Below, piece after piece: positions 14,780 to 42,811 of a stretch of 64,000 nt of DNA (the stretch's first letter is position 1; the number at the start of each line of letters is the position of its first letter). Origin of the DNA: Cantharellus purpuraceus (taxonomy: Eukaryota; Basidiomycota; Agaricomycetes; Cantharellales; Hydnaceae); NCBI GenBank assembly GCA_025174535.1, contig JALBUN010000015.1, forward strand, positions 184,501 to 248,500, given 5' to 3'. Below the pieces are notes generated by a model. The model was given only the letters and a program-made list of their open reading frames with translations. It had not been told where the DNA came from and did no database searches. The position numbers were made by a program, and so were the translations under genes.

Positions 14780-15356
14780 TGTTACACACTGGGTCTGTCA
14801 GAGGTCAGATCTTGGAGATGGAGTTGGAGTCATGGTGGTCAGAATAGACTTGGCTTCAGCTTATGTGCTGTGCCCTCATGTTATGCACTAGGTCCAATGG
14901 GGGGTCAGAACCTGGATTGGAGTTTGGGGTCAGAGTTGGAGTGGGTGTTAGGGTGTGTCATGGGGGTCAGAACAGACTTGGCTTCAGTGTTATGCACTAG
15001 ATCTGATGGGGGGTCAGAACCTGGGTCAGAGTTTGGGGTCAGAGTGTTACACACTAGGTCTGATTGGGGGTCAGAGATTGGGTCAGAGGTTGGGTTGGAG
15101 TTGGAGAGGGACTTGGGATACGTCATGGGGGTTGGAATGGACTTGGCTTCAGCTTATGTGCTGCACCCTCACTAATACCAGTGTCTGAGATTTTGGAGAT
15201 GGAGTACGACTTAGATAGTTAGGATTGGACTTAGGAACTAGGTGTGATTTGATATTCGAACTGGGGATGAAGTCCCCAGTTGGACAGCTTAAATACATAT
15301 TTGAAATTTAATAATAATTACTCCGGTGATGGGTCTCTGAGGCCGACGGCCTTACA
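14780..15356 (+). repeat. repeat A (LTR-like), longest copy
   Basis: The block starts TGTTACACACT and ends GGCCTTACA, so it has TG...CA ends. Copies recur at 25196-25363 plus 33347-33490, 35754-35932, 42451-42773 and 51230-51378. This copy is long because its first part is tandemly repeated: the TGTTA(C/T)(A/G)CACTAG start recurs at about 14879, 14989 and 15047. The shared 3' part includes a stretch near CCGGTGATGGGTCTC. The sequence TGAGTATGTC follows directly here and at 42774, so it is internal element sequence rather than a target duplication. The copy at 25196 abuts the gypsy gag start, which would make A the LTR of that element read in minus sense, but no clear primer-binding site or polypurine tract supports this. 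Confidence 0.65.
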
Positions 15357-15672
15357 TGAGTATGTCCAAGTCCGATGGGGATGGATGTCCAGGTTCCTAT
15401 GGTGATGCTGATACATCAATTGGAACCGGACATGGATGGGTGAGATTTGGCAGTGACAATCAGACAGATAAATGGAGATATGACAGTTTCCAAATGGAGT
15501 ATAGATTTCATATGCGTGGGGATCTGAGTGGATTGGATGGGGATCTGGGTGTTAATGAATATAGTCATAACAGTATCTCTCCATTTAAGGCCAAGCCCCT
15601 GAGGCCTCATGTCCATGGGTAATAGGTGAGACGGTTGGGTGCAGTCAGAGTTATACTGGGGGTCTGGAGACA

Positions 15673-18310: not shown

Positions 18311-19794
18311 CCCAGCATCTAGTTAACACATTGGGCTTTGCTCTGAGTTGACCAGGATGGAAATGGATAATGAGATTGAACTGAGATAGGTATTTGGACC
18401 ATCGGACTTGTCTTCAGGTGAGTAGTTTTGTTGTGGAGAAGTATTCCAAGTTTTTGTGGTCAGTTATGACGTCCACCGGATTGGAGGGGCCTTCCAGGTA
18501 GTGTCTCCATATCCGGAAGGCTTCATATATGGCAAGGAGCCCTTTGTCATGGACATCAGTTCGGGGGGCGTAAATGTACGCAAGTGAAAAGTGATCGGGT
18601 GGACTTGTCCATCGTCTGGAGAGATGATGGACAGGGCAAGTGCATAGTCAGAGGCATCGGTCTCTAATAGTATAGGAACGTCTGGAACCCAATGAGTCAG
18701 TATCGGAGCAGAAGTAAAGGCCTTTTTCAAGGTCTCAAAACTCTGTCTACATTCATCAGTAAAATTCCATTGGATACCCTTCCTAGTAAGTCGGGTGAGC
18801 GGAACGGTGATATCAGAGTAGCCGTGAATGAAGTGGCGGTAGAAGTTGGCAAACCCCAGGAAGGACTGTACGTTTTTGACTTTCCGGGGTTCTGGCCATT
18901 CCTGTATGGCTTTGATTTTGTCATCGGACATTGTCAGTCCTGCCAGGGAGAGGATATAGCCTAGATACTCGACCGAGTTGGAGTGGAATTCACATTTGTC
19001 AGCGCAGGCGAAAAGGCCATGTTTTCAGAGACGTCGGAGTACCTCTTGGACATGTGTCTGATGTTCTTCTTCGTTGTCCAAATATACCAAAATGTCATCT
19101 AAGTAAACGAGGACAGTCACATCGAGGAGGTTGGCAAAGGTATCATTCATGAACCTCTGGAAGGCAGCCGGAGCATTGGTTAGTCTGAAGGGCATGATGC
19201 ACCACTTGAAAGATCCATATTGTGTGCGGAAAGTTGTTTTCCATTCGTCGCCTTCTCGGATGTGGACTAGATGGTAGGCATGTCGGAGATCTATTTTGGA
19301 ATATATCTTAGCCTTTCGAGGACTCTTGAGTAGGTCCACGGTGTGGGGAATTGAGTATCGGTCTTTCTTGGTGATCTTGTTGAGTCCACGGAAGTTGATG
19401 CATAGACGGAGTGATCCGTCCTTTTTGCAGACAAATAGGACCGGAGCACCATGGGGCGATAGGGATGGGCGGATGAAGCCCGTGGCCAAGTTCTCGTCTA
19501 TGAATGTTTGGAGAGCCAGTAGCTCTTTTTGGGATAGCGAGTAGATAGGGCCAAGCGGAGGGGTGGAGTTGTCATCCAGTTCAATCTTGAGATTGTATGG
19601 TCGGTGTTCTGCTAGGGAGTTGGCTTTAGACTTGCTGAATACGTTGGTGAACTCATGATACTCCTTAGGAACCATAGATAGGTCTGGTGGAGTTGATCAG
19701 GTGGAATGAGTGGTGAGGAATATCAGATCGGAGAGGTGGACCTGGAATGTGTGAGAACCATCCAGTTTGCTTAGTCTGGTGAAGACCATAGCGT
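18311..19794 (-). pseudogene. Ty3/gypsy reverse transcriptase - RNase H, broken
   Basis: The minus strand encodes the core of a gypsy pol: [52 protein letters not shown] and the catalytic [11 protein letters not shown]. After an in-frame TAG behind EVLRRL (near 19025) it continues with LGFANFYRHFI and then the RNase H start [14 protein letters not shown]. It ends with [16 protein letters not shown] and a second stop. It is cut at 18310 by an LTR C copy, and the region 5' of the RT is cut at 19794 by repeat B. Integrase is not visible. The element cannot be active; its gag and protease lie at 23442-25163. Confidence 0.9.
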
Positions 19795-21804
19795 TGTCGG
19801 TTCGCTTAAGGAATAGATCCTATAAGCCTGCACGCAACAGTCCTAGCAAAACAGACGGTGTGTAACGCAGCTGTTCAGCACTCCAAAGATCAATCAGGGC
19901 GAGGGGTAAGTAACAGGGAAGTGGGATAGTGCTCTGTAGTTGGATGAGGATGGGAGCAAATGGTCGGTCCCGATTGTATGGGAACCACCTTTTCCCTATC
20001 AAATCCTATTTATGCAGCACCAATGTGCTATTCTTTGCTTTTCCATTCCTAAATATCAGCATATATTTGATGCTTGTACCTGGAATGGACTTATTCAAAT
20101 ATTCTCTATTTTTCCATATTTTTTCGGGAATATTCCATGCAGAACTCGGCTCAGAATCATTTATTTCTGCTGTGCTACAGTTGTGGACCCATAGGCGCCC
20201 ACAAACCTTCGCGCAGCCGGCTCTCCCCTTTTGGACCAGGCATTTGGCCTCAATTCAAGCTCAGATGTCTCTGATCAATAAATATTCTCTAACTTAACAA
20301 CCACAGCCTCTCAGGGCACTATTTTCCATGCAGATCATCACATGACATGTGGCTATCCATGGCTGTGCAAACCAGTGCAGAAAACAGGGTGGACACCCTT
20401 CTTTTTGCCTGATCAGTGCCTAGCTCAGGGATCAGATCAGCTGATGGGTGATCAAATCAGGTGATTGCCTTGGAATATTCTACCCCTTTCCATAACATTC
20501 TAGCTGTTTCCTTCTATTATTAGATAGAACTTTCCAGAACCATTATTCAGCTCCTGATCAGTGTTAGTCCAGTGATCAGAACCTGTGATTGGCTTGGAAT
20601 ATTCTACCCCTTTCTTCCACCTTCCACAACCTTCCAGTAGCTTCCATATATTAATAGGTAGAATATTCCAGAAGCATTACTCAGCCCCTGTAAATACAAT
20701 ATATAAGGAGGCCATTCTGCCTCTGAAAGAAGAACATATCATCATATTCTACCCATCTTCTGCACACCAGTGTGACTAGAGTGACATACAGTGTCATCCT
20801 CTATCTCAGTAACTGTTGATTACCAGTTCAAGGATCTTTTACAGTTGTGTAACTGTACTTGATTGCACTCAAAGTAGTGATATTCCTGCTTTGGGCGTGA
20901 GTGTAGTATCTGCCTCACGTGACTACAAATCTACAGGGTGAGATTGTCTGTCGATAGTCCTGCCATTAGTGCTCTTGTTTAAGTTACTAGTGTGTACTGC
21001 CTTTGCAGAGCATTAGAATCTTGAACTCGTGTGAAGCAGTTGCTAGACTACTTCACACATCACTGTTACCCGCTTCTGAGTGCCACTGGTTGGACGGTTG
21101 GATTCATCCACCTACTTCCTTTAGCCTCTAAGTGCATTCCCATCTTTTTGGAATATCTGGACCCCTAAGCGTCTGTGAACTCTAGACTCTGGAAGTCTTA
21201 TTCATTTCTTGCTGCTAAGAAATGTATTACCTTTCTGTGTATAGTCTGCATTGACCAATACAAAGGATTGTAACCAAAGTATAAACGTTAAATCGTTTCT
21301 GGAGTTGTGCTGCAGCAGGGTTTGATATTCTTCTCAGCTGTTCATTCACGGAATTGTGGTGATTTAGAGTTTGCCCTAACACCATAATTTTGCGGGTTCC
21401 AAAACACCGATGGCTGATCGTGCTCTGTGACTGGATGACAATGCAGAGCCCGGTTGGGAGGTATGCAAAAGCTGGTTTCAGGAGAAGCAACCTCTTGGTG
21501 GCGGAGGGAAATCTGATCATTGAACCAAGGTGTTTTACCTCAGTGTAGAGATGATGGATTGTGATGTAGAGCGTAGAGCATAGACTTAGAGCGTGGACTT
21601 TGACTTTAGAGCGTTGGCTGAAAACTTGTTGATTGATTCCAAAGGCGAAAACTAGCGCCCTTTTATATACAAATCCCCAGGGCACAACGACACAATATGA
21701 GGAGCAAATGATGCGATATGATGCAAGAAATGCTGATCAAGCCAGCTGATGAAGCATGTGAAGTTGAACTACTAATGGGGAAATCATGGAGAAATGAAAT
21801 GACA
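19795..21804 (+). repeat. repeat B, split by a solo LTR C
   Basis: This dispersed repeat begins TGTCGGTTCGCTT and ends near GAAATGACA. It matches an uninterrupted copy at 30278-30812. LTR C (19975-21406) sits inside it. The ends TGTCG...CGACA (in the other copy) are LTR-like, but neither copy has a flanking duplication, so its class is open. Confidence 0.65.
19975..21406 (+). repeat. LTR C, complete solo LTR with TSD CCGAT
   Basis: The 1,432-bp block runs from TGTATGGGAACC to GGTTCCAAAACA. It is flanked by CCGAT at 19970-19974 and 21407-21411. The uninterrupted repeat B at about 30450 reads GGTCCCGATGGCTGATCG, which is exactly the empty target. TG...CA ends, 5-bp duplication and absence of coding sequence mark it as a solo LTR of an LTR retrotransposon whose internal part is not in the window. 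Confidence 0.88.
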
Positions 21805-21869
21805 GATAGGGGTAATCTTTGTAAGAATAGGGGGTGATGAGTAATAAAAGAACCAAAAATAGAACAAGG

Positions 21870-22692
21870 TGTCAAGAATTTATTCAAGGAATATTACAAT
21901 CTATTGGAGCAAGAAGGGGGAGTTTTATGATAAGAAAAGGTTGTGAAAAGTTTGGGAATTTTTTGATTAAGGGATGAGGAGAAGGTGTTTTTTGATTTTA
22001 TTTTGTGAGCCATCCTTTCGTTCTACGGGGGTGGTTACTACTCAAAAAGGGAGGTATTATGATGATTTTCATTCGTCATAAACCTCAAGTCAAACGGGTA
22101 AAAACTCCTTTCTCTGTAAAAAGTTTTTCCCCATGACATCACATATTATCAGTATCCACATCATTTCTTTTATCATATGTTTCAATCTTACTAAAAGGCT
22201 TTTTTATCATGTGATTGTCAAATTGTATATTAACTACAACTGTGTACGAGTATCAATAAGGAGATTCACTATTCTTAATCCCTTCCAAGCTGCAAACAAA
22301 CAGCTTGTGTCAACTTTCTGTCGTTCCTGGAATAACTCCTAAACGACCTATTCGATTTGAAATCTTTTGCATATCCCATTAGGATATTGCATCAACTATT
22401 GCTATCTCAAATTACGAACGATTTGGATTATTACATCCATTTCTATTAAGCAAACACTTTTTCGAAGTGTTGCTATTCCCATTTCTGCTCAAATATTTCG
22501 CAGAAGTCCCAGTTCTTAACCAAATATTCTGATATTTGGTAACATTACTCTACTAAACAATATCTTTCCATAGACCCCGCATATATCTGCATCCTTGCAG
22601 TAATTGCTCCCCTATTCAAAATCTACTTCGCCACCATCCCTCACCATCATTTTACACTCACCCACAACACCCCTCCATATCTTTTCTTAACA
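21870..22692 (+). repeat. LTR D, solo LTR with TSD CAAGG
   Basis: The 823-bp block reads from TGTCAAGAATTT to TTTTCTTAACA. It is flanked on both sides by CAAGG (21865-21869 and 22693-22697). Two more copies are at 34113-34938 and 61927-62749. Confidence 0.9.
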
Positions 22693-22834
22693 CAAGGATG
22701 AGTAAGTTGTGTATGAATGAATTAAAAGATGAAACAGGGGTGAGTCATATAAAAGAACAATAGAAACGTCCACCAATACCATCTTCCATACGGCTCCAAA
22801 GGTAAATTGACCCTGAGTCACATGAGGACTTCAG

Positions 22835-23269
22835 TCAGCTTCCACAACAAATACTCCTTATTGTCTTAGTGATCCGTCTCCATATGGTATCCCGTTCCAA
22901 GAGTATTCGGTCCCTTTGCCTGACACGATGTAACCTGAGTCGGATTGAAGTGGGAGGATAGGTCGGCAATGGCGACTGAAATTCTACCTCACGTTCGACT
23001 TGTCTATCCGTGTTACGATATAGAGGCAAAATGTTGAGGAATGTATATGGTTCAACGGAATTGTGAAAGAATATGGGATTGCCAATGGCATAAGAGAGAC
23101 ATGGTGGGGATCTTGGACGTTGAAAGAGTTTTGGAAGTATTTTGACACGTGGAGGTGGCTTAACATGTCCATGGAGCTCGGCGTATTTTTGATAGTCCTC
23201 TGTGTCCAGAGACCAGTGTGACGTATTATTAGAAGAGATGTTGGAGAGGGGAATAGAATTGGAAGCCAT
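22835..23269 (-). CDS. hypothetical ORF between gypsy protease and RT
   Basis: A 144-codon frame starts MASNSIPLSNISSNN and is rich in Pro, Arg and Ser (RVKILPKLFQRPRSPPC). I do not recognise it. It lies in minus orientation between the protease end at 23442 and the reverse transcriptase block, so it is probably an extra element-encoded frame or captured sequence rather than a host gene. Nothing shows that it is expressed. Confidence 0.3.
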   Translation of the reverse strand: MASNSIPLSNISSNNTSHWSLDTEDYQKYAELHGHVKPPPRVKILPKLFQRPRSPPCLSYAIGNPIFFHNSVEPYTFLNILPLYRNTDRQVEREVEFQSPLPTYPPTSIRLRLHRVRQRDRILLERDTIWRRITKTIRSICCGS

Positions 23270-23441
23270 GTGAATGATGATGAAAGGATCGGTGTGAATT
23301 GAAGGCTGATAATGATCGATGGTGATGAAACACGGGTGACGATCAATGGCTAGAATTAGAGACTGAGGTGGAGAGGGAGTTGCGGCACTATTTAAAAGTT
23401 GATACGAAAAGACGCTGGCGGAGTTGGACTGTCAGAGTGGT

Positions 23442-25163
23442 TCAATATGCGTCCTCGATGCGTCCTGGCTCATCAGCATCCACCAACGATATAAACGGAG
23501 GGGTAGACAGAGTATCTATTGGAGTGGAGTCAGCGGAGGCAGAAGATAGTTTCACACCTAAAGTTGCTGGTGATGTTGGGAATGACACAGCCTGTACTGG
23601 GGAACAGAATGTGATATGGCCCAATGCCCAGTCAATCAACGGATTGTAGCGGGTGAGCCAATTATGTCTGAGAACCACAGAACAGCTGGAGTCAAGTGGA
23701 GTAACATAGAATGTAAGGTTCTGGATTTCTCCGACAGAAAAACGGATAGACAGATCTATAGCTCGTGAAATAACAGCATTAGTAGTGCCATCAAATAATT
23801 GGAGTGGTATTGGAGTTATGGTGTATGTATGGAGTTTATGTAAATTGGAAAAAGAGAAATCGAGGAAACAATGAGTAGAACCGGAGTCAATTAATGCTTG
23901 GATAGCGGTATCGGGAATGGAGTCAGAGTAGATAAGGAGGGTAAGGGAGTCGGGGTGGGAAAGAGTGGATGCGTTCAGGCAGACCTTGTTTGTCGTATGG
24001 GGAGTACCAACACAGCCCTCAGCCCGTACGGAGGCTATAGGACTGCTTACTATTTTTTTGGGTCCATCGTGGCATTGGTGGCATGGCCCTTTGCTTTTGC
24101 TGCGGACGAGGTTGCCTTGTTGCAATCCTTGGCTTGGTGGCCAGGTTTTCTGCAGAACAGACAGAGGTTGTTGTCCATGTGGTGCTGGCGTTCCTGCTGG
24201 GTAAGTTTTCCATCCTTCCCCAGCTTGGTGGAGAGGTCCAGAGTACTCTTGCGAGCTCCAGAGTTATTGCTGGTGCCAGAGTTGTTCTGACTGGAACCAG
24301 AAGCGGCAGCATTACCAGTGTTTGACTTCTGGCCTGAGTTGGTGGTGGTCCTCTTATCGGACCCCTTGTTGGACTTTGGGGTCTTGTCCGATGCTTTGTC
24401 TGATTTGTTGTTGGCCGAATTTTCGTGGGAGACCTTGGATTGACGTTCCCAATAACAGGCATCGATGGATTGGGTGAGCTTGCGAATTAACCAAAGTATC
24501 TGGCTTACCAATGCGTGATATCTTGTCCTTGATGCAGGATGGGAGTCCAATGTAAAATTGGCATCGGAGTGCAACGTCACCCCATTGGACTTTTGGGGCT
24601 AGCTGCTGGAAACTCACAATGTATTTTGCAATTTTGCAATTTTCCTTCATCCGAAGTTGATTGAGTTCATTCTCGGCATCGGCCTTGGGGTTGTAAGGAC
24701 CGAAATTGGTCCAAAGTTTGGAGATGAAGTCGGAGTGGTCATCTGACCATATCAGCTCATCGGAATCATCCATCGCTGGCTTGAAGTAGTCCAGTGCAGT
24801 GCCCTTGAGACAGGACATGGCGAAGGTGACCTTTGCCCGATTGGATGTGAATGCGTCGGGGCGGTTGTGGAAATTCAACCGGCATTGCACCAAGAATGGC
24901 TGGAGCTTTCGCGGATCGGAGCCATCGAATGGGTCAGGTTCTTGGACCTTGGTCTGGGACTTAGGGGCTTGTGGGTTATGGATGCTGCTGGCGAGCAGGG
25001 AGATGGCTTGCACCAGATTTGGAGAGGGTGGGGTGTCATCTTCTTCATTGACGGCCTCTATGTGGTCCGTCGGTTCTTTGATGACCTCAGGGATGGTGTC
25101 AATGCTGGGAGCAGGCACCTCAACAGTTTGTGCGCGTTCGGAATTGGCAGTGGATCGTGGCAT
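23442..25163 (-). pseudogene. Ty3/gypsy gag and retropepsin
   Basis: Gag starts at ATG 25161-25163 (MPRSTANSERAQTVEV). It contains a capsid-like region (DPFDGSDPRKLQPFLVQCR, SDFISKLWTNFGPYNPKAD) and, after a one-base frame change near 24490, a Ser/Asn-rich linker and a zinc knuckle CLFCRKPGHQAKDC (C-X2-C-X4-H-X4-C). Gag ends at TAG 24050-24052. The protease follows in the -1 frame with the retropepsin active site ALIDSGSTHCFLD. In gypsy elements this unit builds the particle and cuts the polyprotein. The frame break in gag and the split pol show a dead copy. The gag start is about 30 bp from repeat A, the presumed 5' LTR. Confidence 0.85.
24050..24059 (-). promoter_or_regulatory. possible -1 frameshift site, A AAA AAA then UAG
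   Basis: On the coding strand gag ends CCA AAA AAA TAG. The heptamer A AAA AAA is a classical -1 slippery sequence, and a -1 slip there leads directly into the protease frame (CCC AAA AAA ATA GTA). Position and direction fit gag-pro recoding, but no experiment or conserved structure is at hand. Confidence 0.55.
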
Positions 25164-25195
25164 TGGTAGGAGTGAGTATGGCAGTTCGAATATAC

Positions 25196-25363
25196 TGTTA
25201 CGCACTAGGTCCGATTGAGGGTCAGGGGTTTGGTTGGAGTCTTGGTTGGAGTCAGAGAAGGAGTTGGGTACGTCATGGGGGTCAGAACAGACTTGGCTTC
25301 AGCTTATGTGCTGCACCCTCACTAATACCGGTGTCCAAGATTTCGGAGACAGAGTATGACTTA
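25196..25363 (+). repeat. repeat A, left half (split by the AT-rich element)
   Basis: The sequence starts TGTTACGCACTAGG and continues to GTATGACTTA, where the AT-rich element begins. Its right half resumes at 33347. Intact copies at 15200, 35770 and 42610 show the uninterrupted sequence GACTTAGA(G/T)AG. Confidence 0.8.
25361..25363 (+). repeat. target-site duplication TTA, left
   Basis: TTA directly precedes the element start GACGCTT and is repeated after its end at 33344-33346. Empty repeat A copies have a single TTA here. Confidence 0.8.
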
Positions 25364-25929
25364 GACGCTTATTCAGAAATACAACAAATACGTATGTACA
25401 ACCTATTTTCCTCAAATTTTATACAATACACTTCAATTCAAACTTATTTTCATATTTCAACATGATTCTCAAATTTTACACAATATACTAGATTAAAACA
25501 TATTTTGATATTTTGGCATAATTCTCAAAAATAATTCTTTTTTTCCTGATTTAGTGGTGGCAACTCTCTTGAAGGAACATCCAAATATCATTGATTCTTT
25601 CTTATACAATACTTATAACATAATTTGAACTATCTTTAATCCCCACCTGGTATTTGTATATCTAAATACCCTATATAATACCAATTATATTAATACATAC
25701 ATTCCTATTATATCCATGTAAATAATTATGTTCATCTCAACCAAATGTCTTATCTTTAAAAGTTTATTAAAATATAGAATATATGTTTATATTTATGAAA
25801 ATTTCACACATCCGAAATCTTTTAAGATATCCAAATTGTAACTCCCTGGCTTTATGTATCATTGAAATTCTGATGTATATCTCATATACATCAGAATATT
25901 GTATACTGACATGATTCCGAACAAGCGTC
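25364..25929 (+). repeat. 566-bp terminal direct repeat, left copy
   Basis: It appears identical to 32778-33343 over its whole length, with a constant offset of 7,414 bp and no gap. It starts GACGCTTATTCAG and ends CCGAACAAGCGTC, so it carries both inverted ends of the whole element. The inner flank (TAGGGAGG) does not duplicate the outer TTA, so the copy is not an independent insertion. Confidence 0.88.
25867..25897. repeat. perfect 14-bp hairpin in the left terminal repeat
   Basis: ATTCTGATGTATAT, then CTC, then its exact complement. It lies 32 bp from the repeat end. The right copy has it at 33281-33311. It could be a protein-binding or replication-related structure. Confidence 0.75.
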
Positions 25930-26008
25930 TAGGGAGGTCATTTTAAAAACAAAAATCATCACCTTATATCATCAACAAGCTTCTTTCTCCATAGATTTAG
26001 ACATGCCA

Positions 26009-26506
26009 TTATGAATTCTTATCTTCATTGGTATGTCTGGACACTGTCCAACACAGCAAAGCCAATAGTATACCAATACTAGTTATGTAGATCATGTGCA
26101 CTGTACGGCCAAGATATAGTTTCTGCCTATTTATATCTGGGCCTGGCTGTCTAACAAACGCCTGATTCACATGTGTGGTTATAATGTGTGCATATCCAGA
26201 GGTTGGATCAGAACCACTTACAAATCTGTTGGTTTTATTCAGAAAACCTGCAAATTCTGCTACAAAAATAGGATCACTTTCATTATAGCCTATTTTATCA
26301 GGTTGTAGACCAAGAAATACATATTTGATATGAGGATACTTTGAAAGCTGGAACACTTCACCTTCAGCATATGAACGGTCCAGATACTGCCCAAAGGGGT
26401 ACCAGTCACACGTTGCACAATTAGCTAGCCGGTGTGGATTGCTGTGAAAAGGCTTTTGGTAAAACTGTTGATTGAGACGCTGTTTCAGTAATGGATCAGT
26501 CTCCAT
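26009..26506 (-). CDS. hypothetical tail-anchored protein (cargo of AT-rich element)
   Basis: A 165-codon frame starts METDPLLKQRLNQQFYQ. It has a CATCDWYPFGQYLD segment, then FQLSKYPHIKYVFLGLQPD and FVAEFAGFLNKTNRFV. One hydrophobic C-terminal helix (MIYITSIGILLALLCWTV) is followed by a short charged tail. This layout suggests a cytosolic domain anchored by its C-terminus. I do not recognise the family. It lies next to and on the same strand as the transposase. The intact length of the frame in AT-rich DNA argues for selection. Confidence 0.55.
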   Translation of the reverse strand: METDPLLKQRLNQQFYQKPFHSNPHRLANCATCDWYPFGQYLDRSYAEGEVFQLSKYPHIKYVFLGLQPDKIGYNESDPIFVAEFAGFLNKTNRFVSGSDPTSGYAHIITTHVNQAFVRQPGPDINRQKLYLGRTVHMIYITSIGILLALLCWTVSRHTNEDKNS

Positions 26507-26561
26507 AGATACCTATAAGTATAAAACATACAAATATTCAATTTTATTCTGGGAAAAAAAT

Positions 26562-27759
26562 TTACAGTTGAATGTAGCATAGGTATACAATAATACTATT
26601 ACTATTGTCTTTCCAATACTCTTTAATACATTCTGTAGATTTAAAGCTTGATGTTGCTTCCCAAGTTTTCTCTGCATAACATTTCCATTTAACTAAATAT
26701 TCTACGTACTTTCCTTTTTCTTTGCCTTATTATTTGTTCTACTTCATTTTCAGTCTCATAATGCATCTCCACATCATACTCACATCTTTCTAATAGTCGT
26801 TGTTGAGATAGAGTCATCTTGTCAACATCTTCTGCTCTTTCCAGTAATGATCTGGGTGGCTCAATATCTGGGTCCTCTTCCTCAGGGTAATCAAAATATT
26901 GTTCACACCATTTTTCATGATAAGGGGATGGTTTGATCTTACGTAGTTCTACAAATTTCTTAATATTCCATAATAGACATGCTACCTTTAATTCCAGATT
27001 AAAGACAGCAGGATTTGTAGTTCTAATAGATCTCTTATTATCAAATTTTTCAAACAATATTGCAAACCCTCCAAAGAATGCTTCTACTGTTGAACTAAAG
27101 GCACCAAACTTCTTATTAAAAATCTTTTCTTCAGGTTTAAGTTCAACATTTTTTGGCTTCCGAAAAGGATAAAAGAAGTTCTTAGGCTTTAATATACTTG
27201 CCTTTACTACTTCTGGAATAGCAGATGGATAAGCTCCATCAAAGCCTATCTGATCATTCTTATCTATTTTATTCCATACAGCCATCTCTACAAACATTTT
27301 TGCATCAGGATTTAGTTTACATGCCAATGAAGGTGAGGTGAATAGAACCATTTGATTAATGTCAATGCATACTTGAGTACGAAATCCTGCCTTTTTAAAT
27401 TTATGTGAGTACCCCTCTTCAGATGTCGATCCAATCAAAATTCCTCTTGTATCATGACCATCAAGAAGTAATGTCACTGATTCCATTTTTGGAGGATTCT
27501 TTATAAGAGCTGATAATATCCTTATTATTATATTTGAGAACATTGTACGCAGTGAATCAGTAACTTGTTTATCTAGATCAAAGTTAAGATAATGCAGACG
27601 ACCATAAAATTCCTTATGAACATCATAAAAGCTACTTGATGGCATGAAATTTCCTATTTCTTCATAAGTAGGACCTTTGAGTAGATGATATAGTACTAAC
27701 AAGCCTTTTTCTATCTCTCTATAAGGTGTAGAATGTTCTTCAACTGAAAACAATACCAC
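26562..27759 (-). CDS. PIF/Harbinger-like DDE transposase with C-terminal chromodomain (frameshifted)
   Basis: The main frame runs to 26689 and carries the DDE nuclease of the DDE_Tnp_4 type: first Asp in VTLLLDGHDTRG, second in QIGFDGAYPSAIPEV, Glu in AFSSTVEAFFGGFAILFEKF. After ENEVEQIIRQRKRK the frame ends, but a shift of one base near 26700 continues as VEYLVKWKCYAEKTWEA and then CIKEYW up to TAA 26562-26564. EVEQII...EYLVKWKCY...TWE is a chromodomain, which normally binds methylated histone H3 tails. No ATG precedes the frame; a TTTTCAG just before SVEEHS suggests a missing 5' exon. The enzyme would cut and integrate element ends, with the chromodomain steering insertion to heterochromatin (inference). 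The frameshift may be inactivating, a recoding site or a sequence error. Confidence 0.72.
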
Positions 27760-27835
27760 AAGAAAGAAAAATACTGGTATTGGTCCAAGCTTGTTATATA
27801 CTACTTTTTTACATCATCCATGTCATTCATATCTT

Positions 27836-28036
27836 TTAGTTTTGTTCTATGATATTTTTGTGTTCTAAGACAGGCCACTTTGTGTATAGAAAATTCCAAT
27901 GATTGTCCATCAACTTATTATATGCTCTGTCCCTTTGATCATTCCACATTTTAAGTTGCTGAAGCTCTTTTTCTTCTTTCTCTTTTTGCTCTTTCTCTTT
28001 TTGCTCCTTTGTGCGTTTTTGCTGGTCTGAGGGCAT
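27836..28036 (-). CDS. hypothetical Lys/Glu-rich small protein (cargo)
   Basis: A 66-codon frame with ATG at 28034-28036: MPSDQQKRTKEQKEKEQKEK, then KMWNDQRDRAYNKLMDNHWN and a Trp/Lys-rich end. The N-terminus is a charged helix. It sits directly upstream of the transposase on the same strand and could be a separate gene or part of a 5' exon; no good splice pair was found. No known family. Confidence 0.4.
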   Translation of the reverse strand: MPSDQQKRTKEQKEKEQKEKEEKELQQLKMWNDQRDRAYNKLMDNHWNFLYTKWPVLEHKNIIEQN

Positions 28037-28132
28037 TTTGACTAAGATACTCTTATATTACAGTAAAACAAAAATATGTTCATTTTTTTGATAATTGAAT
28101 TTTAAATTAAATAATATTTATTCTATGAAGCT

Positions 28133-28783
28133 ATGTTGTCTGTCTCTAAGCAAGTTGTTAGTAAAATATCTACTGTCTTTGTTAAAAAAGAACCAGAGGA
28201 TGATGAAAATCCTTTGTATATAGACTCTGACACCATCTACATAAAATTCAGATTAAGAAATCCCCCAAAGGACTTCTTTCCAGCTGGATCGGTTTCTCAG
28301 GAAAGAGATAAAACACCAGAAGCACTGTACAATAAGATGATTGAAAAGGGCAATGAAATAAGTAATTCAACCTGGATTCAACAAAATCATTGTATGTCAA
28401 GTCTGCAAACCATGCAACAGGATAATCTGCCTAGTTGTAATATTTCTATTGCTAGAGAAACTGGCAAGAAGTGTGATATTTCTATTGCTGGGGAAACTTG
28501 TAAGAACTGTGATGTGTATAACAATTTGGTTACATCAATGGTTGTTGCATTGAAACAACAGCAGAGAGTTTTCAAGAAAAGTAAAATCACAATCTATGGT
28601 ATGATCATAACTAAGGATGGTAGGTTAAAATTATATGAAACCACCAATAACAATCAGGGTGTTTCAATTGTTGTATATCCTTCCTCTGGATACAGCATAG
28701 AAGCTCAGTTTGAAGAGTGTTCTAATGCTATTGACATTATATTCCAAAGTATAAGAAATCAGATGTTCAAAGAATCCTCATAA
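28133..28783 (+). CDS. hypothetical protein (cargo, divergent from transposase)
   Basis: An uninterrupted 216-codon frame, ATG at 28133, opposite in direction to its left neighbours and about 100 bp from them, so the spacer is a divergent promoter. It contains an acidic stretch VKKEPEDDENPLYIDSD, an internal duplication (CNISIARETGKKCD / CDISIAGETCKNCD) with paired cysteines, and a C-terminal part rich in beta-type residues (KITIYGMIITKDGRLKLYE). No family recognised. An intact 650-bp frame at this AT content is unlikely by chance. Confidence 0.55.
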   Translation: MLSVSKQVVSKISTVFVKKEPEDDENPLYIDSDTIYIKFRLRNPPKDFFPAGSVSQERDKTPEALYNKMIEKGNEISNSTWIQQNHCMSSLQTMQQDNLPSCNISIARETGKKCDISIAGETCKNCDVYNNLVTSMVVALKQQQRVFKKSKITIYGMIITKDGRLKLYETTNNNQGVSIVVYPSSGYSIEAQFEECSNAIDIIFQSIRNQMFKESS

Positions 28784-28869
28784 GGAGTTGATTTAAAAGT
28801 CCTAGTTTCTACACTCACAACATTTTTCATCTATTTTCACTTGGATAATTTCAAGATTTGAACTTTTGT

Positions 28870-29025
28870 TCACACAACAATAAGTACCATTAGTATCATG
28901 ATGAGTATTTTTGAATGTTCAGAGCTCTTAGGACATTTAATATCCTTACAATCTGTAACTACAGATGTAGTAGTTATATGATTGCACTTCCAAGTAATTT
29001 GAATTTTTTCACTATCACCACACAT
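28870..29025 (-). CDS. possible 51-aa Cys-rich peptide with C-terminal membrane helix (cargo)
   Basis: The frame runs from ATG 29023-29025 to TGA 28870-28872: MCGDSEKIQITWKCNH, then CKDIKCPKSS, then a hydrophobic end ILIMILMVLIVV. Five cysteines and a tail anchor are suggestive, but the frame is very short and has an in-frame stop just upstream. Confidence 0.25.
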   Translation of the reverse strand: MCGDSEKIQITWKCNHITTTSVVTDCKDIKCPKSSEHSKILIMILMVLIVV

Positions 29026-29076
29026 GCCTTCATTTGAGTGAATAAAAATATTGCATATTCACTTATCTGATTTATC

Positions 29077-29256
29077 TTATACTTGTTGTAGTGCACGTAG
29101 TGGTAGCTGAATCTCATTGTCATCATAAGTAACAGTTATTAGCAAAGTGTCATCTGACAAAGTGCCAGTTACTAATGTAACAATACCTGTCACTGTCATT
29201 TGTGTTCTTGCATTGATAAATGATACCTTATCACCAATCTCGGGTATATTCAACAT
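29077..29256 (-). CDS. 59-aa small beta-rich protein (cargo)
   Basis: The frame runs from ATG 29254-29256 to TAA 29077-29079. It reads MLNIPEIGDKVSFINARTQM, VTGIVTLVTGTLSDDTLLIT and ends LPLRALQQV. The pattern of alternating hydrophobic residues with GDKV and TGIV turns is like a small SH3-type or OB-type barrel. It is coherent protein sequence, not random, but I cannot name the family. Confidence 0.42.
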   Translation of the reverse strand: MLNIPEIGDKVSFINARTQMTVTGIVTLVTGTLSDDTLLITVTYDDNEIQLPLRALQQV

Positions 29257-29294
29257 GGTGTCTCTGGTTATTATATATTAATTTTCAAAACTCA

Positions 29295-29540
29295 TTATTT
29301 CTCATCTAATTTCCTATCAAGTATATCTACAAACTTCTTAAATGCTTCAAAACACTGTAGAACATTCTTTCTACTATTAATATGTTTCATACCTGTTACT
29401 GTTACAGGAAAACAACACCTTACATTTGTTATCACTTCTGAAAACAACCCTTCTGTGATAGCATGATCAAGCTCTCTTGTAACAGTTACTAGGTAAAACT
29501 GGGGGACTTTTCTCGATGTTTGAATGCAAGGTATTGTCAT
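29295..29540 (-). CDS. 81-aa hypothetical protein (cargo)
   Basis: ATG at 29538-29540. The frame includes PQFYLVTVTRELDHAI and ends CFEAFKKFVDILDRKLDEK, an amphipathic helix. No domain was recognised. It lies in a minus-strand row with 29077-29256 and 29618-29785. Confidence 0.38.
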   Translation of the reverse strand: MTIPCIQTSRKVPQFYLVTVTRELDHAITEGLFSEVITNVRCCFPVTVTGMKHINSRKNVLQCFEAFKKFVDILDRKLDEK

Positions 29541-29617
29541 TTCCTCTAAAGCACTTTTTCCCTTATTCTTCCTTATCTAAGTATGTAAAAATTTTCTTGA
29601 AGACTCCTTTAAACATT

Positions 29618-29785
29618 TCACATCATCTTTTTGTAATCAAAACTGAGGATCTCATCATCAGTATCTAAAGTAATATCTCTAAAATCTGTCTCAAAAAACT
29701 GTTTAGTCCATTGTGTGTCAACCATTATACCATAATCCCAAAGATCATGAGAACTCCAATCATTGCACTTCTTATCTTTACCCAT
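29618..29785 (-). CDS. 55-aa acidic/aromatic hypothetical protein (cargo)
   Basis: The frame runs from ATG 29783-29785 to TGA 29618-29620: MGKDKKCNDWSSHDLWDYG, then TQWTKQFFETDFRD and DTDDEILSFDYKKMM. It is rich in Asp, Trp and Phe with a sensible protein composition. Family unknown. Confidence 0.35.
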   Translation of the reverse strand: MGKDKKCNDWSSHDLWDYGIMVDTQWTKQFFETDFRDITLDTDDEILSFDYKKMM

Positions 29786-30277
29786 GATGTCAATAAAGAA
29801 GGATATATAAAATTTATTTACTAGATATGTGCATAGTTCTGAAGAGCAGAATGTCCATATTTTTATCTAATATTTATAAATTGAATTATATATATTTTCT
29901 AAAGTTGTCAATAGCCAGATGCATGCACTCGTTCTGAATACTACAACAAAGTCCCATACAGAATTCCCTGTCCTTTCATCTATCATTCTTCTACCAGTTC
30001 CTTGTTTCCTATCTTGCCAGTCTTTCATTCCAAATTCTTTGCTGCATAGCTAAATAGGTGTACCAGCCGATTGGATATTATCATATCATGGTAATGACGT
30101 CGGATGGAAGGTCACCTTGTCAGGAGCAGTTTGATCACATTATCAAAGGACAGCCTTTTGGCTGTGAGGGTTGATAATGATGCACTTACTGAGCAGACAG
30201 TAGGTGAGACTTTGCAGCGGCATGGTGTACCAGATAATTGAATCGTTGTCCTTGAGCAGCCCGATGATGTCACTCGG

Positions 30278-30812
30278 TGTCGGTTCGCTTATGGAATAGA
30301 TCCTATAAGCCTGCGTGCAATGGTCCTAGCAAGCAGACGGTGTGTAACGCAGTTGTTCAGCACTCCAAAGATCAATCAGGTCGAGGGGTACGTAACAGGG
30401 AAGTGGGATAGTGCTCTGTGGTTGGATGAGGATGGGAGCAAAAGGTCGGTCCCGATGGCTGATCGTGCTCTGTGACTGGATGACAATGCGGAGCCCGGTT
30501 GGGAGGTACGCGAAAGCTGGTTTCAGGAGAAGCAACCTCTCGGTGGCGGAGGGAAATCTGATCGTTGAACCAAGGTGTTTTACCTCAGTGTAGAGATGAT
30601 GGATTGTGATGTAGAGTGTAGACTTAGAGCGTTGGCTGAAAACTTGTTTTTTGATTCCAAAGGCAAAAACTAGCGCCCTTTTATATACAAATTCCCAGGG
30701 CACAACGACACAATATGAGGAGCAAATGATGCAAGAAATGCTGATCAAGCCAGCTGACGAAGCATGTGAAGTTGAGCTACTAAAGGGGAAATCATGGAGA
30801 AATGAAACGACA
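30278..30812 (+). repeat. repeat B, uninterrupted copy
   Basis: It starts TGTCGGTTCGCTT and ends GAAACGACA. It matches 19795-21804 without the inserted LTR C and so provides the empty site for that insertion. It lies in a higher-GC block (about 30060-30890) whose edges carry weak inverted similarity (AAGGTCACCTTG at both sides), suggesting it entered the AT-rich element as part of a second insertion. Confidence 0.7.
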
Positions 30813-30892
30813 GATAGGGACATCATTAGACTGCTCATGGACAGCCATTCACTCCAAGGTGACCTTGTATCCTACGTCTTCGGAGGCTTACA

Positions 30893-32238
30893 TTACTGGG
30901 TTCTACCTCTACATCTTTTTCTTGAACTAGGAATTTGAGATTGATCAGAGTCTGAATCAGATTGATCAGAGTCTGAATCAGATTGATCAGAGTCTGAATC
31001 AGATTGATCAGAGTCTGAATCAGATTGATCAGAGTCTGAATCAGATTGATCAGAGTCTGAATCAGATTGATCAGAGTCTGAATCAGATTGATCAGAGTCT
31101 GAATCAGATTGATCAGAGTCTGAATCAGATTGATCAGAGTCTGAATCAGATTGATCAGAGTCTGAATCAGATTGATCAGAGTCTGAATCAGATCGTTCCT
31201 TAGACCTTTTTTCTTGATGCCTTGAACTAGGAGTTTGAGATCGTTCCTTAGACCTTTTTTCTTGATGCCTTGAACTAGGAGTTTGAGATCGTTCCTTAGA
31301 CCTTTTTTCTTGATGCCTTGAACTAGGAGTCATTCCTTGCTTCCATGTTTGAAAATTAATCCTATTACCATCTACGTCATATGATGACATTTCATTCTTT
31401 CTAGTATATATTGTAGATAGTTTTCTAGGCTCACCATTTATGAATAATTCCATTCTATTTAGTCTACAAGACTGATCTGAGTCTATAAGTATATAGTCTA
31501 CACCTCTTTTCACTATCTTAAATGTCACCTTTCTGGTACCATTTTCCTGTAACCTTGTTACCTCCTGTTCTTGTTTTCCAGCCCAGTGATTCATATCAAA
31601 TTTCCAGTCAACAATCTCAGATATTATTGCTTTATATTTATCACCCTGTTTCTGAAGTTTATTAATGTCTGTTCCAAGTTCCACTACAGTATCATCTGTT
31701 TCTACAATCCACTCATGCACTTCAGATTTCCATTCCACAATGTCTGATATTGTTGCAATACATCTATTAACCTGTTTCTGAAGTTTATGAATATCTGTTC
31801 TATAGTCCAATATAAGATTCTCTGCATTATGTGTATTGACCTGTTGATGAATATCTGTTCCATGGTCTGATATTGTGGCAACACACCTATTAACCTGTCT
31901 CTGAAGTTTATGAATATCTGTTCCAAATCCTGATACAATATCATTCATTTCACTCATCCATTCATCTAAATTCTCTTTCCTGTCTGTCAAAGTAGTTATA
32001 ATTGTATTTTTTCCTCAACCTGTTTCTTAAGCACCTGAATTTCCTGACTCTGGGAATTAACCTGTTGTTCAAGCATAGTGATCTGCCTATCCTTTTCACT
32101 CATCCAAGACTTGACATTTATAAGATCAGATATTAATTCATCTTTTACTTCCATTTGACTTGCCATAGCTTTTATCAGTGCATCATTGTCACTTATCCAG
32201 CCTTTGATTGCTTTTATATCTTCAAAGATTTGTGGCAT
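30893..32238 (-). CDS. coiled-coil protein with 12 x DSDSDQS tail (cargo, frameshifted)
   Basis: ATG at 32236-32238 opens MPQIFEDIKAIKGWISDND, followed by coiled coil (ITMLEQQVNSQSQEIQVLKK). The frame ends at an A6 run (32007-32012 on the plus strand). One extra A would join it smoothly to the next 360 codons, so I treat both as one gene of about 440 residues. The second part repeats a module of the type GTDIHKLQ(R/K)QVNRC(V/I)ATIS several times. A compact region (VDYILIDSDQSCRLNRMELF) follows, then three copies of TPSSRHQEKRSKERS and twelve DSDSDQS units. A long coiled coil followed by a disordered acidic/serine tail suggests a structural or nucleoprotein-binding role, but no family is recognised. 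The 3' end abuts the later insertion. Confidence 0.55.
30937..31192. repeat. 21-bp tandem repeat, 12 units
   Basis: The unit ATTGATCAGAGTCTGAATCAG is repeated without apparent variation and encodes DSDSDQS on the minus strand. Perfect units imply recent expansion. Three 48-bp units encoding SSRHQEKRSKERSQTP follow at 31193-31335. Confidence 0.9.
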
Positions 32239-32384
32239 TTTCAAATCCCTCTCTGCTTATAAAACAGAAATGAAAAAACATAATAATCATTTTTTCTGAA
32301 CATTTGATATTTTGTATAGGCAGTAGATATATACATCTTGCTTTCTTAATAAAATGATTATTATGTTTTTATGTTATAAGCATT

Positions 32385-32711
32385 ATGAAGATGCTCTCTT
32401 TTATGCTTCAATGCAAGATAGAGTTTGATAGAAGAGTTAATGATTGGTATATATCTCGGATAGGATCCCTCCATGATTTGTTTCTGAGGTAAGTTCCTTT
32501 ATAAATATCAAGGTTCCAATCACTGACTTTATACAGATGTACTGATGGCACACTTCTGGAACAGAAATTAACAGAGTTATATACTAGTATGGAGCAGGAT
32601 CATTATTTTCCACCACTTTGGATGGAAAATCTGATGGTATTGCACCCTAAAGTACGAGGGATAGTCATACAGTCTCATGTTAGAACAAGATTATCTACCA
32701 CTATGCCCTAA
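32385..32711 (+). CDS. spliced 92-aa hypothetical protein (cargo)
   Basis: Exon 1 (32385-32488) reads MKMLSFMLQCKIEFDRRVND and ISRIGSLHDLFLR. A 48-nt intron with GTAAGT and TACAG borders (32489-32536) follows, then exon 2: CTDGTLLEQKLTELYTSMEQ, YFPPLWMENLMVLHPKVRG and the stop at 32709-32711. The intron restores the frame exactly and has consensus borders, which supports a real, eukaryotically expressed gene inside the element. Function unknown. It is transcribed away from the coiled-coil gene. Confidence 0.5.
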
Positions 32712-32777
32712 CTAAGTTACTTTGTTTTAAAAATAGCTTCACTGCATTAAAGGTGTTTGTTTCCAAGACTTTCCTAA

Positions 32778-33343
32778 GACGCTTATTCAGAAATACAACA
32801 AATACGTATGTACAACCTATTTTCCTCAAATTTTATACAATACACTTCAATTCAAACTTATTTTCATATTTCAACATGATTCTCAAATTTTACACAATAT
32901 ACTAGATTAAAACATATTTTGATATTTTGGCATAATTCTCAAAAATAATTCTTTTTTTCCTGATTTAGTGGTGGCAACTCTCTTGAAGGAACATCCAAAT
33001 ATCATTGATTCTTTCTTATACAATACTTATAACATAATTTGAACTATCTTTAATCCCCACCTGGTATTTGTATATCTAAATACCCTATATAATACCAATT
33101 ATATTAATACATACATTCCTATTATATCCATGTAAATAATTATGTTCATCTCAACCAAATGTCTTATCTTTAAAAGTTTATTAAAATATAGAATATATGT
33201 TTATATTTATGAAAATTTCACACATCCGAAATCTTTTAAGATATCCAAATTGTAACTCCCTGGCTTTATGTATCATTGAAATTCTGATGTATATCTCATA
33301 TACATCAGAATATTGTATACTGACATGATTCCGAACAAGCGTC
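32778..33343 (+). repeat. 566-bp terminal direct repeat, right copy
   Basis: Apparently identical to 25364-25929, same orientation, with the hairpin at 33281-33311. Its outer end GCGTC is followed by TTA (33344-33346), the right target duplication. Confidence 0.88.
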
Positions 33344-33490
33344 TTAGAGAATTAGAATCGGACTTAGGAACTAGGCATGATTTGATATTCAAACTGGGGA
33401 ATGAAGTCCCTAGTTGGACAACTTAAATACATATTTGAAATCTAATAATAATTACTCCGGTGATGGGTCTCCAAGGCCGACGGCCTTACA
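33344..33490 (+). repeat. TTA duplication and repeat A, right half
   Basis: Resumes repeat A after the AT-rich element and ends GGCCTTACA. The next base starts LTR C (TGTTTTGG), so two TG...CA-type repeats meet end to end. Confidence 0.8.
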
Positions 33491-42450: not shown

Positions 42451-42773
42451 TGTTACGCACTAGGTCTGATTGGGGGTCTGATTGGGTCAGAGATTGGGTC
42501 AGAGATTGGGTCGGAGTCGGAGAGGGAATCAGGGTGCGTCATGAAGGTCAGAATGGACTTGGCTTCAGCTTATGTGCTGCACCCTCACTAATACCGGTGT
42601 CCAAGATTTCGAAGACAAGTATGACTTAGATAGTTAGGATTGGACTTTAGGAGCTAGGCATGATTCGATATTCAAACTGGGGAATGAGGTACCCAGTCAG
42701 GCAACTTAAATACATATTTGAAATCTAATAATAATTACTCCAGTGATGGGTCTCCAGGGCCGACAGCCTTACA
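42451..42773 (+). repeat. repeat A, short form
   Basis: TGTTACGCACTAGG to GCCTTACA, 323 bp, without the tandem expansion seen at 14780. It is followed by the internal sequence TGAGTATGTC, as at 15357. Confidence 0.75.
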
Positions 42774-42811
42774 TGAGTATGTCTGAGTCCGATGGGGATG
42801 GATGTCCAGGT

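What the first reader, a model, noticed from the sequence alone, without database searches (positions are those of the whole stretch)
25364..33343. Undescribed-looking AT-rich element: long terminal direct repeats plus Harbinger-type transposase and cargo
Read directly: 566-bp terminal direct repeats that look identical, TIR-like ends GACGCTTRTTCRGAA, a TTA duplication, and empty-site copies of the target (repeat A at 15200, 35770, 42610). Family knowledge: TTA duplications and this DDE type belong to PIF/Harbinger elements, which normally have short inverted repeats, no long direct repeats and two genes. Here about nine frames are present, in a base composition unlike anything around. Inference: a large transposon with captured genes, or a circular element that recombined into a resident 566-bp copy.
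Basis: partly seen in the sequence, partly recalled or inferred. Interest (0 to 1): 0.9.

Follow-up and report, generated by a model that had tools for sequence, protein, structure and literature searches.

The report
LTR-flanked Harbinger-type fungal DNA transposon
A young family of jumping DNA in a fungus-like genome carries a cut-and-paste type transposase but is built like a retrovirus, with a long identical repeat at each end, and its two end repeats look freshly copied from one original at most insertions examined, which suggests an unusual copying route for this kind of element.

Summary
Window 25364-33343 is one copy of a recent multicopy family: 59 left-repeat/interior and 61 interior/right-repeat junctions genome-wide, and 419 matches to the repeat's 3' end, so solo repeats appear to be the majority. 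Each 566-bp terminal direct repeat (LTDR) has its own 15-bp inverted ends. Of 36 monomers checked, 31 have a matching 3-bp duplication outside both repeats; 24 of 43 duplications are TTA/TAA, in a palindromic C-TWA-G target. The interior encodes a DDE_Tnp_4 (Harbinger-type) transposase plus about six orphan genes.
Key evidence: LTDRs differ between elements (median 9) and are mosaics, but the two LTDRs of one TSD-matched element are usually identical outside a T-run (median 0; 19 of 31). Both ends thus mostly derive from a single LTDR around insertion. I favour a one-LTDR circle inserted as a replicative cointegrate (IS26-like); the route is inferred.
The architecture is known from KolobokP of animals (Kojima & Bao 2022), another transposase superfamily: a new variant of a known kind. 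Against: LTDRs are about five times more diverse than most of the core, linkage is weak, T-run differences recur, no circle seen.

The parts
25361..25363 (.). left target-site duplication TTA
   Evidence: joined flanks match empty sites with a single TTA
25364..25929 (+). left long terminal direct repeat (LTDR), 566 bp, with its own 15-bp inverted ends (25364-25378 / 25915-25929)
   Evidence: identical to the right copy
25930..32777 (.). interior (INT). Edges TAG (25930-25932) and TAA (32775-32777) resemble an old 3-bp target duplication in the family's C-TWA-G target
   Evidence: edge reading is inference
26009..26506 (-). gene A, 165 aa, orphan, predicted C-terminal helix of membrane-span type
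   Evidence: no relative found; only residues 122-165 above pLDDT 50; 87-92% aa in two older copies, dN/dS 0.22-0.47
26689..28036 (-). DDE_Tnp_4 (Harbinger-type) transposase gene; frame interrupted in this copy; D, D, E conserved (D100, D174, E226 of the 356-aa ORF 26689-27759)
   Evidence: uninterrupted 449 aa in copy L050
28133..28783 (+). gene F, 216 aa, orphan, with a 36-nt internal repeat
29077..29256 (-). gene D, 59 aa, orphan small ORF
29295..29785 (-). gene C, 146 aa, predicted intron 29572-29621, orphan
   Evidence: exon 2 98.8% aa in L109
30096..30878 (.). nested GC-richer segment bounded by 24-nt inverted arms; matches other sequence of the window; aligned in most of the 22 scored interior copies
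30893..32238 (-). gene E, coiled-coil-like protein with 21-bp and 48-bp in-frame tandem repeats; two abutting frames in this copy
32385..32711 (+). gene G, 92 aa, predicted intron 32489-32536 (GTAAGT..CAG), orphan
   Evidence: 48-bp intron present in all 8 elements examined
32778..33343 (+). right LTDR, 566 bp, with inverted ends 32778-32792 / 33329-33343
33344..33346 (.). right target-site duplication TTA
15063..15358 (+). empty-site copy of the target repeat
42484..42775 (+). empty-site copy of the target repeat

Best explanation
This is one copy of a recently active DNA transposon family with the composition LTDR-INT-LTDR. Its INT codes for a Harbinger-type DDE transposase and about six accessory genes. 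SHOWN: the inserted unit ends at the inverted repeats of the outer LTDR edges and makes a 3-bp duplication, mostly in C-TWA-G targets; solo LTDRs and tandem (LTDR-INT)n arrays exist; and in most elements examined the two LTDRs carry the same mosaic of variants, so they descend from one LTDR copied around the time of insertion. INFERRED: recombination between the LTDRs of an element releases a circle with one LTDR plus INT and leaves a solo LTDR. The transposase then recognises the two inverted ends of that single LTDR in the circle and inserts it by replicative strand transfer, as in a Shapiro/IS26-type cointegrate. The LTDR is copied, the circle's backbone (INT) ends up between the two copies, the new duplication lies outside, and the old donor duplication (TAG/TAA) stays at the INT edges.
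For: Family and ends. TSDs: matched in 31 of 36 monomers and in 8 of 10 solo LTDRs among the loci cut, and in 5 of 5 further solos sampled. Target: 43 sites, TTA 15, TAA 9, C at -1 in 67%, G at +1 in 72%. Single-LTDR origin: 41 LTDR pairs have mean 2.4 / median 1 substitutions against a median of 11 between elements; the summed pair difference is 98 against a minimum of 368 in 300 shuffles of partners. With a T-run masked, TSD-matched pairs have median 0 (19 of 31 zero) against 9 between elements, while the 5 TSD-mismatched elements have median 5. Both LTDRs of an element mostly share the same mosaic. Tandem arrays on C38, C44 and C45; the C45 array is flanked by TTA/TTA. Some LTDR and core haplotypes travel together to different sites (mean LTDR distance to the core-nearest neighbour 7.6 against 9.5 permuted, p 0.014, 30 elements). 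INT edges look like an old target site, which is what a cointegrate predicts (PMC7986276 passages). Predicted genes on both strands keep short introns.
Against: No circle or circle junction was observed. LTDR diversity (about 2.0%) is about five times that of the first 2.85 kb of core (about 0.4%), overall LTDR-core correlation is weak (Mantel r 0.16-0.20, p 0.06-0.11), and some near-identical cores have different LTDRs (L059/L060: core 2, LTDR 12), so LTDRs also exchange with a larger pool. A T-run, masked in the main count, differs in length between the two LTDRs in 13 of 39 readable pairs: left longer in 10, right longer in 3. Independent insertions share such a difference (C1g/C1i, T7/T6; C10/C45c, T6/T5). 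If this is not recurrent homopolymer slippage, whole units moved there without a single-LTDR stage. Four TSD-matched elements have 4-5 LTDR differences. The INT-edge 'duplication' is imperfect (TAG/TAA).
Confidence: 0.5

Rival explanations
1. Gap-repair capture: a linear or broken LTDR-INT circle integrates by host homologous recombination into resident solo LTDRs, copying the resident LTDR to both sides. The TSDs are those of the old solo insertion.
For: Solo LTDRs appear abundant (419 repeat 3' ends against about 120 accounted for by element junctions). LTDR haplotypes are more diverse than, and only weakly linked to, cores. It gives identical pairs. Kojima & Bao propose circle integration into solo LTDRs for KolobokP.
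Against: Simple crossover would leave chimeric, different LTDRs, so conversion to the resident allele over the whole 566 bp would be needed in most cases. Some core and LTDR haplotypes co-occur at different sites (C10/C36/C45c and C1b/C47).
Confidence: 0.2
2. Ordinary cut-and-paste of the whole LTDR-INT-LTDR unit, with frequent gene conversion keeping the two LTDRs of one copy alike.
For: Matching TSDs around whole units and an empty site with a single TTA. The T-run differences shared by independent insertions (C1g/C1i, C10/C45c) would be inherited.
Against: Conversion would have to be almost complete in elements whose interiors are mostly 98-100% alike, yet not have acted in the 5 TSD-mismatched elements (LTDR differences 1, 3, 5, 6, 8).
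Confidence: 0.21
3. A non-autonomous LTR retrotransposon (LARD-like) that picked up a transposase gene and moves with help from other retroelements.
For: Long terminal direct repeats with pair identity and mosaicism, solo repeats, Ty3-type elements in the same window.
Against: Repeats end GACGC..GCGTC, not TG..CA; 3-bp C-TWA-G target duplications of Harbinger type; INT starts TAGGGAGGTC, with no TGG primer-site start (direct reading); no reverse transcriptase among the ORFs and gene models scanned (not every ORF was scanned); predicted introns in genes of both strands.
Confidence: 0.04
4. Assembly or polishing artefact that made the repeats identical.
For: Only one assembly was seen.
Against: Dozens of loci with different flanks and TSDs, and LTDR haplotypes that differ between loci but mostly agree within a locus.
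Confidence: 0.02

Closest known systems
KolobokP DNA transposons (Kojima & Bao 2022, PMC9587614)
   Same: LTDR-INT-LTDR with short inverted ends in each LTDR (up to 18 bp), LTDR about 450 or 660 bp, solo LTDRs and (LTDR-INT)n arrays, transposase in INT, RR..YY termini
   Different: [quoted passage not shown] Here a DDE_Tnp_4/Harbinger-type transposase without that motif, no recognised nuclease, 3-bp C-TWA-G targets, larger orphan cargo, fungus-like host
PIF/Harbinger DNA transposons
   Same: DDE_Tnp_4 catalytic domain, 3-bp TWA-rich target duplication, short inverted ends (family features recalled)
   Different: Long terminal direct repeats, multi-gene cargo; no recognised Myb/SANT-type second gene; many relatives of this transposase carry a chromodomain
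IS26/IS6-family translocatable units and pseudo-compound transposons (PMC7986276)
   Same: Direct terminal repeats around passenger DNA, new duplication outside and old donor repeats inside, circle with one repeat as mobile unit, arrays (passages); circle here inferred
   Different: Bacterial; the transposase lies inside the repeated IS, whereas here the repeat has no recognised gene and the transposase is in the passenger part
LTR retrotransposons / LARDs
   Same: Near-identical terminal repeats per copy, solo repeats, mosaicism
   Different: No RT found, no TG..CA, no primer-site start, Harbinger-type target duplication

Membership tests
PIF/Harbinger | DDE_Tnp_4-type transposase with D, D, E | tested here: met
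   Window and L050 proteins hit PF13359 below its cut-off (E 0.0021 and 0.001); 6 of 6 relatives scanned score above it; D100, D174, E226 aligned
PIF/Harbinger | 3-bp TWA target duplication | tested here: met
   3 bp in 31 of 36 monomers; 24 of 43 TTA/TAA, the others mostly A/T-rich; looser than strict TWA
PIF/Harbinger | short terminal inverted repeats and no long direct repeats (recalled) | tested here: not met
   15-bp inverted ends are present, but inside 566-bp direct repeats
PIF/Harbinger | second, Myb/SANT-like DNA-binding gene (recalled) | tested here: inconclusive
   No such Pfam match among genes A, F, D, C, E, G; very diverged forms could be missed
KolobokP | LTDR-INT-LTDR with inverted ends in each LTDR, solos and multimers | tested here: met
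KolobokP | Kolobok transposase with C/DxxH between second D and E | tested here: not met
   No H between D174 and E226 of the window protein; PF13359 relatives
KolobokP | His-Me finger homing endonuclease | tested here: inconclusive
   No nuclease domain found by Pfam; orphan proteins A and F gave mostly or wholly low-confidence folds
LTR retrotransposon | reverse transcriptase, TG..CA ends, primer-binding site | tested here: not met
IS26-like translocatable unit (mechanism) | circular one-repeat intermediate inserted by transposase | not testable with these tools
   Only possible footprints (pair identity, inner/outer duplications, arrays) are visible

The most novel reading that the evidence does not exclude
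A eukaryotic Harbinger-type transposase that works by replicative cointegration. The true transposon is the 566-bp repeat, which sits in a multi-gene circle; each insertion fuses the whole circle into the chromosome between two fresh copies of the repeat. It would be an independently evolved eukaryotic counterpart of IS26 translocatable units, possibly explaining KolobokP as well.
Probability: 0.37. Interest if true: 0.88.

Novelty: new variant of a known kind. Interest (0 to 1): 0.72.

Why it matters
KolobokP was presented as unlike any other DNA transposon, with an unknown molecular pathway. The same architecture in another transposase superfamily and another kind of host suggests a repeated evolutionary solution. 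The within-element identity of mosaic LTDRs is a footprint that bears on copying models versus plain cut-and-paste; in PMC9587614 a search for 'identical', 'gene conversion', 'divergence' and 'homogen' showed no passage making that test, though I did not read the whole paper. A young family with about 59 copies, some with uninterrupted transposase frames, makes the open question of replicative DDE transposition in eukaryotes testable. Practical point (inference): tools that call 'LTR retrotransposon' from paired repeats would misclassify it, and repeat-divergence dating would rest on a different copying process.

Tried and rejected
Considered and rejected. (a) A one-off cointegrate or assembly oddity: the family has dozens of loci. 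(b) Simple crossover of a circle into resident repeats as the general route. (c) LTR retrotransposon. (d) A virus or prokaryotic element: 18 pattern matches in viral contigs and 23 in prokaryote genomes, none confirmed as a relative.

Led nowhere. Relatives of genes A and F among 5.8 billion proteins: none at E 0.01 (word-based sensitivity). Structure of F: pLDDT 34, unusable; of A: confident only for its C-terminal helix; no fold search was run. PDB by sequence: 6 hits, best E 1.7, taken as chance. Rfam on the window: 0 matches. INT-INT junctions without an LTDR: 0 exact matches. A literal search for a recalled PIF 9-bp target consensus found no paper, so I do not rely on it.

I lowered the best explanation from 0.55 to 0.5 and the novel case from 0.4 to 0.37, and raised cut-and-paste from 0.17 to 0.21.

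Literature searches that ran. The only paper of this architecture found was PMC9587614. Of it I read its outline, parts 1-3 of 6 of the full text, part 1 of 2 of the Discussion, and found passages. Of PMC7986276 and PMC12810828 I saw found passages only. 'Not found in print' means these searches of open PMC papers only; Repbase was not searched.
Full report
WHAT IS THERE. The window lies at C15:184501-248500 of a 40.15-Mb, 50-contig assembly. Two direct repeats, identical over 568 bp, bound 25364-33343, and identity stops at the element edge. Each repeat carries its own 15-bp inverted ends (13 of 15 positions complementary). TTA lies on both outer sides, and the joined flanks match two uninterrupted copies of the target with a single TTA at 87%, and a third in part at 81%. 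GC is 25.7% (repeat) and 35.2% (interior) against 46.5% around.

A FAMILY, NOT A SINGLE EVENT. The repeat gave 43 hits with only the best 40 of 690 candidates scored. The transposase gave 95 hit segments; the interior gave 42 segments from 22 scored candidates. Whole-genome pattern counts: 419 repeat 3' ends (17-mer, up to 1 mismatch), 59 left-repeat/interior junctions and 61 interior/right-repeat junctions (22-mers, up to 2 mismatches), with 0 in the reversed-pattern controls. About 120 repeat ends are therefore explained by element junctions, fewer where arrays share a repeat, and roughly 300 remain, most likely solo repeats. I sampled 5 of these: all 5 are full-length, 96-98% identical, with matching 3-bp duplications. 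No interior-interior junction without a repeat was found (exact pattern). Three places are tandem arrays sharing a repeat (C38, C44, C45); the C45 array is bounded by TTA/TTA.

THE UNIT THAT INSERTS. I obtained both ends for 37 monomers (of about 59 left junctions); one (C15c) has a truncated left repeat and was dropped from the duplication count. Of the other 36, 31 have the same 3 bp outside both repeats, as do 8 of the 10 solo repeats among the loci cut. Across 43 matched sites (30 monomers after dropping C8, a duplicated locus, plus 8 and 5 solos) the duplications are TTA 15, TAA 9, TAT 4, ATA 3, TGA 2, CTA 2, TTT 2, CAA 2, and one each of TTG, TCG, AAA and TCA, with C before (67%) and G after (72%): a palindromic C-TWA-G preference. 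A few of these targets are copies of the same genomic repeat (C1e and C36; the window element and L030), so not all 43 are independent sequences. The whole repeat-interior-repeat unit is thus what the target sees, and the target looks Harbinger-like.

THE KEY TEST. If whole units were simply cut and pasted, the left and right repeats of each copy should drift apart about as much as repeats of different copies do. In 41 repeat pairs (37 monomers and 4 pairs within arrays) the mean number of substitutions is 2.4 and the median 1, against a median of 11 between elements. The summed pair difference of 98 is far below the minimum of 368 in 300 shuffles of partners. Repeats of different elements are mosaics of shared variant blocks, yet left and right of one element mostly show the same mosaic. 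With a T-run masked, the 31 duplication-matched elements have median 0 (19 with none; largest 5), while the 5 elements with mismatched duplications, probably products of exchange between elements, have 1, 3, 5, 6 and 8. So in most insertions examined both repeats descend from one repeat copied around the time of insertion.

RESULTS AGAINST. Repeat diversity is about 2.0% and interior diversity about 0.4% over the first 2.85 kb, rising to 1.2-3.4% beyond window position 28784 (30 elements). Repeat and interior distances correlate weakly (Mantel r 0.16 for 2.9 kb, p 0.11; r 0.20 for the adjacent 1 kb, p 0.06). Core-nearest neighbours do have closer repeats than expected (7.6 against 9.5, p 0.014), but there are clear exceptions such as L059/L060 (core 2, repeat 12). 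Repeats therefore also exchange with a larger pool, presumably the solos. The masked T-run differs in length between left and right in 13 of 39 readable pairs, left longer in 10 and right longer in 3, and independent insertions share a difference (C1g/C1i; C10/C45c); this may be slippage, or a sign that some units moved whole. No circle has been seen.

GENES. The transposase matches PF13359 weakly (E 0.0021, below the curated cut-off). The protein search gave 44 relatives, three with organism names (Apophysomyces, Thamnidium, Linnemannia); 6 of 6 scanned carry PF13359 above its cut-off, and 3 of those 6 a C-terminal chromodomain; the window protein ends where that domain begins. D100, D174 and E226 are conserved. 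The frame is interrupted upstream in this copy; other copies have open frames up to 461 aa, one of 449 aa from its ATG. Genes A, F, C, D, E and G have no Pfam match above cut-off; A and F have no relative in the protein search. Two older copies (L108, L109) keep A and F, and L109 keeps C exon 2, at 84-99% aa. dN/dS is 0.22-0.47 for A and 0.26 for C exon 2 (few changes), but 0.54-0.61 for F and 0.87-0.91 for the transposase, which in L109 contains a stop. Constraint on the cargo is thus suggested for A and weak or unclear for the rest. Introns are predicted in C (minus strand; checked only in the window) and G (plus strand); the 48-bp intron of G is present in all 8 elements examined, which speaks against an RNA intermediate.

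MECHANISM. In a replicative cointegrate the new duplication lies outside the fused unit and the old donor repeats lie just inside the two copies (PMC7986276 passages). Here the new duplication is outside, and the interior edges read CCTAA[repeat]TAGGG, close to the family's own target with TAA/TAG in place of a perfect duplication. I therefore favour: repeat-repeat recombination releases a circle with one repeat and leaves a solo; the transposase acts on the two inverted ends of that repeat; replicative strand transfer fuses the circle into the target. Shown: unit, duplications, one-repeat origin in most elements examined, solos, arrays. Inferred: circle, replication, use of this transposase. 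The main rivals are recombinational gap repair into resident solos, which also gives identical pairs and better explains the extra repeat diversity, and plain cut-and-paste with strong gene conversion, which better explains shared T-run differences.

COMPARISON. KolobokP of animals has the same anatomy, including solos and multimers, and the interior of KolobokP-1_MeMe starts and ends with TATA, comparable to the TAG/TAA edges here. [quoted passage not shown] It has Harbinger-type catalysis and target but fails the usual no-direct-repeat anatomy. I file it as a Harbinger-type transposon with a KolobokP-like architecture: a new variant of a known kind.

Noticed in passing
window 18464-25205 (minus strand): Decayed Ty3-type retroelement (gag, protease, RT, RNase H fragments); the transposon lies in repeat sequence just upstream of its gag.
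   Followed up: partly
window 30096-30878: GC-richer segment with 24-nt inverted arms inside the interior, matching 19792-19974 (93%) and 21407-21811 (87%); most of the scored interior copies align across it, so it was probably captured before the recent burst.
   Followed up: partly
window 30896-31333: In-frame 21-bp and 48-bp tandem repeats in the coiled-coil gene E; alignment breaks of the interior fall in this region in many copies.
   Followed up: no
LTDR positions about 175-186 (window 25537-25548 and 32951-32962): T-run length differs between left and right repeat in 13 of 39 readable pairs, left longer in 10 and right longer in 3; unexplained.
   Followed up: partly
L108, L109 (C23:1084500-1094490, C35:11500-21450): Older copies in which the transposase is only 63% identical (aa) while neighbouring cargo genes are 84-99%; suggests module exchange between subfamilies.
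   Followed up: partly
C1e (L013/L021), C36 (L056/L075), L027: Insertions at what looks like the same site of a repeated target, one in the opposite orientation: perhaps a preferred target.
   Followed up: no
L078 (C23:3508034-3509200): A right LTDR directly followed by a second LTDR in inverted orientation.
   Followed up: no
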